The position numbers and the translations under genes were made by a program. Under the pieces are notes generated by a model that was not told the DNA's origin, made no database searches, and saw only the letters and a program-made list of their open reading frames with translations. From Promethearchaeia archaeon (GTDB lineage Archaea > Asgardarchaeota > Lokiarchaeia > Sigyniarchaeales > SOKP01), in NCBI GenBank assembly GCA_029856145.1, contig JAHQWK010000006.1, forward strand, positions 1 to 56,235: a stretch of DNA of 56,235 bases, read 5' to 3'. Position 1 is the first letter of the stretch, and each line of letters starts with the position of its first letter. Positions 30,220-31,094 of the stretch are shown here, in pieces.

Positions 30220-30765
30220 TTATATTTCAAATCGCTGCTTGTCTTTGTGTTCTTTTACTGAAATTTCTCTCTCACTGAGTCTATTAAGTTTTACTAAACT
30301 ATCTTTCATTGCTTTAATCTCTGCGCGAGTAGTAACCTTATAATCTTTTAAATTATCAAGGATTTCTTTCTCACTAAAACCTTTATTATAGACTTCTTCG
30401 AATTTTGCGATTGTTTTCTCATGATAGAAAATATATTGTTTATTTAAGAAAGCAATTAACCAGTCTTTTTTTTCTTGTTTTTGAGATAATTCAAACATCT
30501 CATCCTGTATTTTTAGTAAAGATTTCTTAAACTTTCGTGCAATTAACTCATCTTCAATTTTATAGTATTTTCTTAGGAATTTATGAAGTTTTCTTTTAAA
30601 AAGCAATCTTGGAACATATGATAACAAGAACAACACTAATGTGATACCGGACATCCAAATAGCAGCTATGGGATTATAAATGGCTACAATTAGGATAATA
30701 GCCACAAGAAAAAGAAACCATCTTCTTCCAATTGTTTTTATTATAACAATATACTTTTTTGGCAA
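30220..30765 (-). CDS. membrane protein with two N-terminal helices
   Basis: A 181-residue protein with two close hydrophobic segments (about 14-30 and 33-50; WFLFLVAIILIVAIYNPIAAIWMSGITLVLFLLSYV), then a 125-residue Lys/Glu-rich helical cytosolic domain (KSLLKIQDEMFELSQKQEKKDWLIAFLNKQ) ending in KDKQRFEI. No family recognised. It ends one base from the end of the VOC gene on the other strand. Confidence 0.55.
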   Translation of the reverse strand: MPKKYIVIIKTIGRRWFLFLVAIILIVAIYNPIAAIWMSGITLVLFLLSYVPRLLFKRKLHKFLRKYYKIEDELIARKFKKSLLKIQDEMFELSQKQEKKDWLIAFLNKQYIFYHEKTIAKFEEVYNKGFSEKEILDNLKDYKVTTRAEIKAMKDSLVKLNRLSEREISVKEHKDKQRFEI

Positions 30766-30854: not shown

Positions 30855-31046
30855 ACGTATAACCACATAAAAAAGCGTGACCGGGTATTTTCCTTGTATG
30901 CCATGACCGTAAGCTAACTTACAGTTTGTAGTTTCCCATAGATCGCAACTACAGTACTATCTACAACGCGAAACAAGTTTAACTTCCGGGTTCGGATGGT
31001 TCCAGCGCAGTAGCGAATTGCTACTAATTTATGTGGTTATGAACGT
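30855..31046 (-). repeat. processing stem around the permuted 5S, with bulge-helix motif
   Basis: Bases 30859-30871 and 31028-31040 are perfect 13-bp inverted repeats. After a 2-base bulge, ACGT at 30855-30858 and 31043-31046 extends the stem. Inside, GCG (31008-31006) pairs with CGC (30877-30875). CUGG (31005-31002) pairs with CCGG (30884-30881). These are set apart by the 3-nt bulge UCA (30880-30878), with AAC (31001-30999) on the other strand after CUGG. This is the strand arrangement of an archaeal bulge-helix-bulge site, though the inner helix is open (bulge-helix-loop). A small hairpin (AGUAGC with GCUACU) sits at 31024-31008. It parallels the processing stems of archaeal 16S and 23S rRNA. 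Confidence 0.65.
30879..30999 (-). rRNA. rrf: 5S ribosomal RNA, circularly permuted gene
   Basis: On the minus strand, CCGAACCCGGAAGUUAAAC (loop C/helix III) is followed by helix V (UUGUAG with CUACAA), AGUACU, the GCGA loop and GGGAA: the 3' half of an archaeal 5S. Instead of ending, the RNA turns in a UUAG loop (30917-30914) that caps an 8-bp helix I (30925-30918 with 30913-30906). It then continues as the normal 5' half: GGUCAU, helix II strand ACAAG (pairs with CUUGU), GGAAAAUACCCGGUC. The order is 3' half then 5' half. Joining 30879 to 30999 recreates CCCGGUC-CCAUCCGAAC and a 121-nt 5S, the standard length. It stands apart from 16S/23S genes. Ends are predicted from a bulge-helix model. 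Confidence 0.85.
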
Positions 31047-31094
31047 AATTTTGAACCATTTTATAAGGTCGGTTATTTTATAAGAAAATACTTA

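What the first reader, a model, noticed from the sequence alone, without database searches (positions are those of the whole stretch)
30879..30999. Naturally circularly permuted 5S rRNA gene
Seen: all landmarks of an archaeal 5S are present on the minus strand but in rotated order. Loop C/helix III 3' side comes first (31000-30980), then helix V, the GCGA and GGGAA signatures, helix I closed by a UUAG loop (30917-30914), the GGUCAU loop A region, helix II 5' strand, and GGAAAAUACCCGGUC (30893-30879). Joining the ends gives 121 nt and the consensus CCCGGUCCCAUCCGAACCCGG. So the old 5' and 3' ends are fused and the gene opens in loop C. I recall permuted 5S genes in some mitochondria (Rfam model mtPerm-5S), but I know of none in archaea. 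The mature ribosomal RNA may be circular or have ends in loop C.
Basis: partly seen in the sequence, partly recalled or inferred. Interest (0 to 1): 0.95.

Follow-up and report, generated by a model that had tools for sequence, protein, structure and literature searches.

The report
Scrambled ring-forming 5S ribosomal RNA gene
This archaeal genome, likely a Lokiarchaeon, shows a single 5S ribosomal RNA gene whose parts are written in rotated order; its transcript is predicted to be cut and sealed into a ring by the tRNA-splicing enzymes, and the same rotated gene shows up in most of the related Asgard genomes searched, which likely explains why their 5S gene has seemed to be missing.

Summary
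On the minus strand, 30999-30879 holds a full 5S rRNA in circularly permuted order; rotated, it folds into the standard five-helix 5S. Unrotated it scores 28.9 bits against Rfam 5S (cut-off 38), and no other 5S was found in the 3.55 Mb genome.

Tools added three things. The genome encodes two EndA subunits and RtcB. (2) A model built from relatives finds the permuted gene in 139 of 227 Asgard genomes (22 families); 59 others have only a conventional 5S. Over 81 distinct loci the motif is far above a swap control. (3) The opening moves: loop C here, beside helix III in most relatives.

The circle itself is predicted; no RNA data were available, and in the window the motif is close to, but not, the lowest-energy fold. 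Nearest precedent: circular permuted SRP RNA of Thermoproteus. Ten full-text searches listed no report of permuted 5S genes in archaea.

The parts
30879..30999 (-). Permuted 5S rRNA, predicted 121-nt circle; gene order: loop C 3' part, helix III 3', helix II 3', helix V, helix IV, helix V, helix I 3', cap, helix I 5', helix II 5', helix III 5'
30906..30925 (-). Helix I (30925-30918 with 30913-30906) closed by UUAG (30917-30914): the old 5' and 3' ends, fused
   Evidence: 73 of 90 distinct relatives have a 4-nt cap, 52 of them UNCG
30893..30977 (-). Helix II: 30901-30893 with 30977-30968
30879..30993 (-). Helix III with loop C pairs: 30889-30879 with 30993-30981; the gene is opened within this arm
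30926..30966 (-). Helix V (30966-30961 with 30931-30926) and helix IV (30954-30949 with 30941-30936)
30998..31008 (-). Bulge-helix-bulge, 5' strand: GCG outer, CUGG central, bulge AA^C; predicted cut between 31000 and 30999
   Evidence: cut rule partly recalled
30875..30884 (-). Bulge-helix-bulge, 3' strand: CCGG central, bulge UC^A, CGC outer; predicted cut between 30879 and 30878
31028..31040 (-). Terminal stem, 5' strand (AUAACCACAUAAA), 13 bp with 30871-30859
30859..30871 (-). Terminal stem, 3' strand (UUUAUGUGGUUAU)
31008..31026 (-). Leader hairpin between terminal stem and bulge-helix-bulge; role unknown
31059..31066 (-). TATA-like box TTATAAAA, about 20-26 nt upstream of the terminal stem; predicted promoter, untested
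   Evidence: sequence

Best explanation
Window 30999-30879 (minus strand) carries a complete 5S rRNA sequence in circularly permuted order, and its precursor is predicted to fold into a bulge-helix-bulge that the tRNA-splicing endonuclease EndA would cut and the ligase RtcB would likely seal into a 121-nt circular 5S rRNA. Shown: the rotated order, the canonical predicted fold after rotation, a single 5S-like locus in the genome, flanks that can form the motif, and the recurrence of order and motif across Asgard archaea. Inferred: transcription from the TATA-like box, formation of the long terminal stem, cuts at 31000|30999 and 30879|30878, ligation, and use of the circle in the large ribosomal subunit with helix I closed by its tetraloop. 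The central helix of the motif (CUGG/CCGG) borrows the 5' strand of helix III; once the circle is closed this strand would pair with its normal partner, so the processing fold and the mature fold exclude each other.
For: Rotated fold canonical; HMM 26.4 to 42.2 bits on rotation. Of 961 junctions tried, 792 gave a score and the one set by the bulge-helix-bulge ranks first, 41.7 against 38.0 for the next. 139 of 227 genomes of the phylum in 22 families have the permuted order; the model R1 was built without the window and scores it at 96.1 bits. Of 81 distinct relatives, 58 have the motif with an outer stem of 4 bp or more and 54 of those 58 have cut sites that give the consensus length; with 5' flanks exchanged between families the means are 7.4 (max 15) and 2.1 (max 6) in 200 runs. 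Outer stems differ wholly between families yet pair. Helices covary. Own genome: two EndA paralogues and one RtcB. Circular 16S and 23S transcripts have been seen in Asgard archaea (PMC12918454, passages), and a permuted SRP RNA is circularised this way in Thermoproteus (PMC4731332, abstract and passages).
Against: No RNA data here. In the window the outer helix next to the motif is 3 bp, and enforcing the motif costs 2.2 kcal/mol (-60.9 against -63.1; the mature helix III fold -62.7). 23 of 81 relatives miss the criterion, some by one mismatch, and family f21 is one nucleotide off. The window itself is not in the 81 because it opens elsewhere. PMC12918454 says that circularisation is known for archaeal 16S and 23S but not 5S.
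Confidence: 0.82

Rival explanations
1. The mature 5S is permuted but linear: the precursor is trimmed at or near the motif or the terminal stem and never ligated, so that the ribosome would carry a 5S with its ends in or beside the helix III arm.
For: Ends are not known. Permuted 5S genes in mitochondria are precedents for rotated order (cited in PMC10085705; that paper itself not held; whether their RNA is linear is only recalled). 23 of 81 relatives lack a motif that meets the criterion.
Against: The cut sites give the consensus sequence and length only after ligation, in 54 of the 58 relatives that qualify and in the window. RtcB is present. For the loop C opening, linear ends would leave conserved loop C broken.
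Confidence: 0.11
2. The circle is only an intermediate: it would be reopened at the helix I cap to give a conventional linear 5S, as permuted tRNAs are.
For: Permuted tRNA transcripts are circularised and then cleaved to the standard form (PMC10085705 passage).
Against: The cap is a 4-nt loop in 73 of 90 distinct rows, 52 of them UNCG, with no room for a spacer, and helix I is 99.8% paired right under it. An engineered 5S with its ends joined by a 4-nt connector works in E. coli ribosomes (PMC7283268, abstract and passages).
Confidence: 0.05
3. The locus is a relic or chance arrangement and a normal 5S lies in an unassembled part of the genome.
For: The assembly is in 32 contigs and 97% complete, so a small gene could be absent; 29 of 227 genomes show neither form.
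Against: 139 of 227 genomes share the order and helices covary. Only five of the 139 also have an RF00001 match over its cut-off: three beside a bacterial 23S, one on a contig that does not fit its bin, one overlapping the permuted copy itself.
Confidence: 0.02

Closest known systems
Permuted, circular SRP RNA of Thermoproteus tenax (PMC4731332; abstract and passages seen)
   Same: Gene in rotated order; bulge-helix-bulge at the ends; EndA (cleavage shown there) and RtcB proposed; 'missing' standard gene; opening near a functional loop
   Different: Different RNA; reported for T. tenax and T. uzoniensis, against 139 of 227 Asgard genomes here; circularity shown there by RNA-Seq, only predicted here
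mtPerm-5S, permuted mitochondrial 5S (RF02547)
   Same: 5S rRNA encoded in rotated order
   Different: RF02547 does not match the locus; organellar; no EndA/bulge-helix-bulge route known to me (recalled; the source paper was not held)
Permuted tRNA genes of archaea and algae (PMC3218864, abstract seen)
   Same: Rotated gene, tRNA-splicing motif
   Different: tRNAs are reopened to the standard linear form; here helix I is sealed by a tetraloop
Circular pre-16S/pre-23S rRNA and the permuted 23S of Pyrococcus (PMC7714728, PMC12918454, PMC7758197; passages seen)
   Same: rRNA excised at a bulge-helix-bulge and circularised
   Different: Those genes are in normal order; here the gene itself is rotated and the RNA is 5S
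Circular RNAs of conventional 5S in Halobacterium and Sulfolobus (PMC12558985, passages seen)
   Same: Circular molecules containing 5S, one of them the whole 5S
   Different: Gene in normal order; many variable ends, suggested there to be part of degradation
Engineered cp5S in E. coli (PMC7283268; abstract and passages seen)
   Same: Native 5S ends joined by a 4-nt connector and a new opening in loop C or D
   Different: Man-made, inserted into 23S rRNA, with assembly defects

Membership tests
5S rRNA (RF00001) | Three-way junction with helices I-V | tested here: met
   Predicted fold of the rotated window sequence; covariation over 90 distinct rows
5S rRNA (RF00001) | Score over Rfam's gathering cut-off in conventional order | tested here: not met
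   28.9 bits against 38 for the DNA as it stands. This concerns gene order; the rotated sequence could not be given to the tool
5S rRNA (RF00001) | Homology to conventional 5S once rotated | tested here: met
   HMM of 34 conventional 5S genes: 42.2 bits over profile 5-116, 26.4 unrotated
5S rRNA (RF00001) | Part of the large ribosomal subunit | not testable with these tools
   No RNA or structure data; only 5S found in its genome
mtPerm-5S (RF02547) | Match to the family's covariance model | tested here: not met
   Eight genomes searched: one match, 16.5 bits (cut-off 39), on another contig than the window
mtPerm-5S (RF02547) | 5S in circularly permuted order | tested here: met
mtPerm-5S (RF02547) | Encoded in a mitochondrial genome | tested here: not met
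   Archaeal genome of 3.55 Mb; relatives named Lokiarchaeota/Lokiarchaeia
Permuted RNAs circularised by EndA/RtcB (Thermoproteus SRP RNA type) | Bulge-helix-bulge (4-bp helix, two 3-nt bulges) at the gene's ends | tested here: met
   Window; relatives: 58 of 81 against 7.4 in the swap control
Permuted RNAs circularised by EndA/RtcB (Thermoproteus SRP RNA type) | EndA and RtcB encoded in the genome | tested here: met
Permuted RNAs circularised by EndA/RtcB (Thermoproteus SRP RNA type) | Circular RNA observed; cleavage by EndA in vitro | not testable with these tools
   No RNA reads or bench work available

The most novel reading that the evidence does not exclude
Most Asgard archaea, the closest known prokaryotic relatives of eukaryotes, build their ribosomes with a covalently closed circular 5S rRNA that has no ends at all, made from a permuted gene by the tRNA-splicing enzymes; the permutation is old in the phylum, and its opening has since moved between at least three places around helix III.
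Probability: 0.6. Interest if true: 0.96.

Novelty: new variant of a known kind. Interest (0 to 1): 0.93.

Why it matters
5S rRNA is a core part of cellular ribosomes and is generally taken to be a linear molecule whose ends meet in helix I. Here a large part of a phylum encodes it in rotated order and, by prediction, uses it as a circle. [quoted passage not shown] identity inferred from size) has two permuted copies. It is a natural counterpart of the engineered 5S with a 4-nt connector, extends bulge-helix-bulge processing to 5S rRNA, offers a rare structural marker for Asgard phylogeny, and can be tested at once on existing metatranscriptomes.

Tried and rejected
mtPerm-5S membership: no match at the locus. 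Relic or chance: rejected by 139 of 227 genomes and covariation. A first generic motif scan around 5S anchors printed many chance pairings, also at conventional loci, and for the window printed only a pairing unrelated to 5S (the true one fell under its print threshold); it is used here only for L021. The junction-aware scan listed 47 of 70 loci, of which I judged L003, L012 and L013 spurious, leaving 44; the same scan on 40 further loci listed 39, several of them plainly chance at its looser threshold, so no count is taken from it. Counts come from the anchor-based scan (perfect central helix, 82 distinct loci, 58 with an outer stem of 3 bp or more, 53 of them at the consensus length) and with its swap control. 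Minimum free energy alone does not favour the motif in the window. A TATA-like count upstream of relatives was only weakly peaked and is not used. A pattern for inserts at the usual opening site of conventional 5S genes hit 1 of 227 genomes, on a contig that does not fit its bin. Occurrence outside Asgard archaea was tested only with one exact pattern; a slightly looser form of it hit 58 of the 126 loci on which it was tried, which include duplicates and non-permuted ones, so absence elsewhere is not shown.

Literature: full-text searches listed no paper that I recognised from title, abstract or passages as reporting permuted 5S genes in archaea. The library holds open-licence papers only and no preprints.

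Full report
What is there. On the minus strand the 5S landmarks come in rotated order: CCAUCCGAACCCGGAAGUUAAAC, helices V and IV, GGGAA, the 3' strand of helix I, UUAG, the 5' strand of helix I, GGUCAUGG, helix II and ACCCGGUC. The circle 30999-30879 is 121 nt. Rotated to conventional order, its predicted fold is the canonical 5S (window coordinates). RF00001 scores the unrotated DNA at 28.9 bits, below the cut-off of 38, and this is the only match in the genome. A profile HMM of 34 conventional 5S genes of the same phylum (not each checked for contamination) gives 26.4 bits before and 42.2 after rotation.

The ends. The flanks can pair as a bulge-helix-bulge: 5' GCG-CUGG-AA^C, 3' CCGG-UC^A-CGC. 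The definition, a 4-bp helix and two 3-nt bulges, was read in PMC7714728 (passages); the exact cut within the bulge is recalled. Cutting and ligating gives CCCGGUC|CCAUCCGAACCCGG. Without using the motif I tried 961 junctions against the conventional HMM; 792 gave a score and this one ranks first, 41.7 bits, next best 38.0. A 13-bp terminal stem lies outside, with a hairpin between. Against: the motif is not the energy minimum (-60.9 against -63.1 kcal/mol), the adjoining outer helix is 3 bp, and the circle's folding energy is no lower than that of shuffles (-21.9 against -21.2, sd 3.6; all). The whole precursor stretch does fold better than shuffles (z -3.2).

How widespread. A covariance model R1 built from 21 permuted relatives, without the window, was run over 227 genomes of the phylum. 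By my count of its table 139 have a match at E 1.2e-9 or better (one, G002, cut off by a contig end), in 22 families. The other 47 genomes with matches (E from 1.8e-8 to 0.01) all have an RF00001 match over its cut-off. RF00001 exceeds its cut-off in 64 of 227. Five genomes are in both sets: G012, G051 and G133 have the conventional gene beside a bacterial 23S; G106 has it on a contig whose RpoB is split and only 44-47% identical to that of the six Asgard genomes compared; in G123 the two matches overlap. That leaves 59 genomes with only a conventional 5S (families f2, f8, f13, f15, f19) and 29 with neither. Apart from the five, no family mixes the two forms. f2 belongs to the window's own order, so conventional genes sit among permuted ones; reversion, transfer and repeated permutation are all open.

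Names. A pattern scan of the named genome collection (84,980 species by the tool's description) gave 48 hits. 38 are in records labelled Lokiarchaeota, Lokiarchaeia, Odinarchaeia, Jordarchaeum, Njordarchaeum or Asgard group, and R1 matches all 38; it matches none of the 10 bacterial hits, which are probably chance. Contigs of identical length tie four genomes of the window's genus (G005, G006, G007, G014) to Lokiarchaeota or Lokiarchaeia records. The window's own record is not named.

Structure is maintained. On 90 distinct rows 94.5% of cells pair, and 816 cells have changes on both sides against 220 in shuffles; sliding partners by 1-3 columns drops pairing to 35-46% (that alignment was fitted to the model). 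On the MAFFT alignment of 21 relatives, not fitted to a structure, RNAalifold finds helices I, III, IV and V, with 18 of 25 pairs changed on both sides at least once. Helix I ends in a 4-nt loop in 73 of 90 rows, 52 of them UNCG.

The motif across lineages. R1 gave 95 matches in 94 loci. I dropped the six loop C loci (L001, which is the window, L021, L024, L026, L031, L034), L016 and the second match in L137, leaving 87, of which 81 have distinct flanks. 58 of 81 have an outer stem of at least 4 bp with at least 3 of 4 central pairs, and in 54 of these 58 the cut sites give the consensus length. Exchanging 5' flanks between families (200 runs) gives 7.4 (sd 2.4, max 15) and 2.1 (sd 1.3, max 6). 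17 of 21 families have at least one locus of the second kind (all). Outer stems reach 16 bp and differ wholly between families; the central helix varies (CCGG/CCGG, CUGG/CCAG, CUGG/UCAG, CGUG/CACG, CCGA/UCGG, GCCG/CGGU); and three cut registers (CACGGA|AGUUAA, CCGGAA|GUUAA, CGGUAA|UUAA) lead to one product length. Against: 23 of 81 do not qualify, some by a mismatch or a short stem, and f21 is offset by one nucleotide.

The opening moves. Most relatives open just 3' of helix III. The window and four congeners (L024, L026, L031, L034), and L021 in another genus, open in loop C with the same kind of motif. The flanks of the window and its congener L022 are alike, and a short segment has changed sides. 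L016 appears to open between helix II and helix III (my reading). The locus is syntenic within the family: the downstream 181-aa gene was found in 48 of 96 loci searched, all 48 in family f1.

Enzymes. The genome has two EndA paralogues and one RtcB. The first aligns over residues 22-198 of 198 with a crystallised EndA. The second seems to lack the catalytic histidine (read from the sequence, motif recalled), which suggests a two-subunit enzyme. PMC4731332 describes the heterotetrameric family as having the most relaxed motif recognition (passage).

Comparison. The nearest precedent is the SRP RNA of Thermoproteus (PMC4731332), whose authors find it plausible that permuted genes derive from a variant with simple bulge-helix-bulge introns. 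L215, a conventional-order 5S with a 23-nt insert at the usual opening site and the same CACG/CGUG helix, looks like such a form, though its contig is of uncertain origin. Circular RNAs from conventional 5S genes are known in Halobacterium and Sulfolobus, with variable ends, suggested to be linked to degradation (PMC12558985); PMC12918454 states that circularisation is known for archaeal 16S and 23S but not 5S. The Heimdallarchaeum authors could not predict 5S genes (PMC8813620). I saw no report of permuted 5S genes in archaea in the searches named under Tried and rejected.

Verdict. The permuted gene is established by sequence and comparison; the circular product is a strong prediction (0.82) that existing metatranscriptomes could test.

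Noticed in passing
L215 / L235 (G106:C117:8277-8414): A 5S gene in conventional order with a 23-nt insert exactly at the usual opening site, CACG GA^A ... CGUG AA^A, that reads as a bulge-helix-bulge intron. The contig has a split rpoB and does not fit its Asgard bin, so its owner is unknown.
   Followed up: partly
L016 (G062:C63): A third opening site: the permuted 5S seems to open between helix II and helix III, with CCGA/UCGG as the central helix.
   Followed up: partly
L054, L055, L056, L058, L063, L068, L069, L125-L134: An insert of roughly 30 nt in loop C, framed by CCGA(AAA-like) and UCGG(GAA): a second bulge-helix-bulge-like element, intron or expansion.
   Followed up: no
L224 (G213:C15:39893-40044): A conventional-order 5S (39.7 bits) with an insert of about 30 nt just after GUUAA; possibly another intron.
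   Followed up: no
L022 and L129 (helix IV); L131 (helix I cap): Extra segments within permuted 5S: about 30 nt in helix IV, and a long extension of the helix I cap in L131.
   Followed up: no
L137 (G146:C510:3667-3963); G066:C1:1399892-1400758: Tandem copies: two permuted 5S genes in a row in G146, three conventional ones in a row in G066. Tandem duplication is one route to permutation.
   Followed up: no
window 31008-31026: A leader hairpin (UAGUAGC-AAUUC-GCUACUG) between terminal stem and bulge-helix-bulge, with similar hairpins in relatives; role unknown.
   Followed up: no
window 30220-30765 (minus strand): A gene for a 181-aa protein, hydrophobic near its start, kept next to the permuted 5S in family f1 (48 of 96 loci searched, all in f1); function not examined.
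   Followed up: partly
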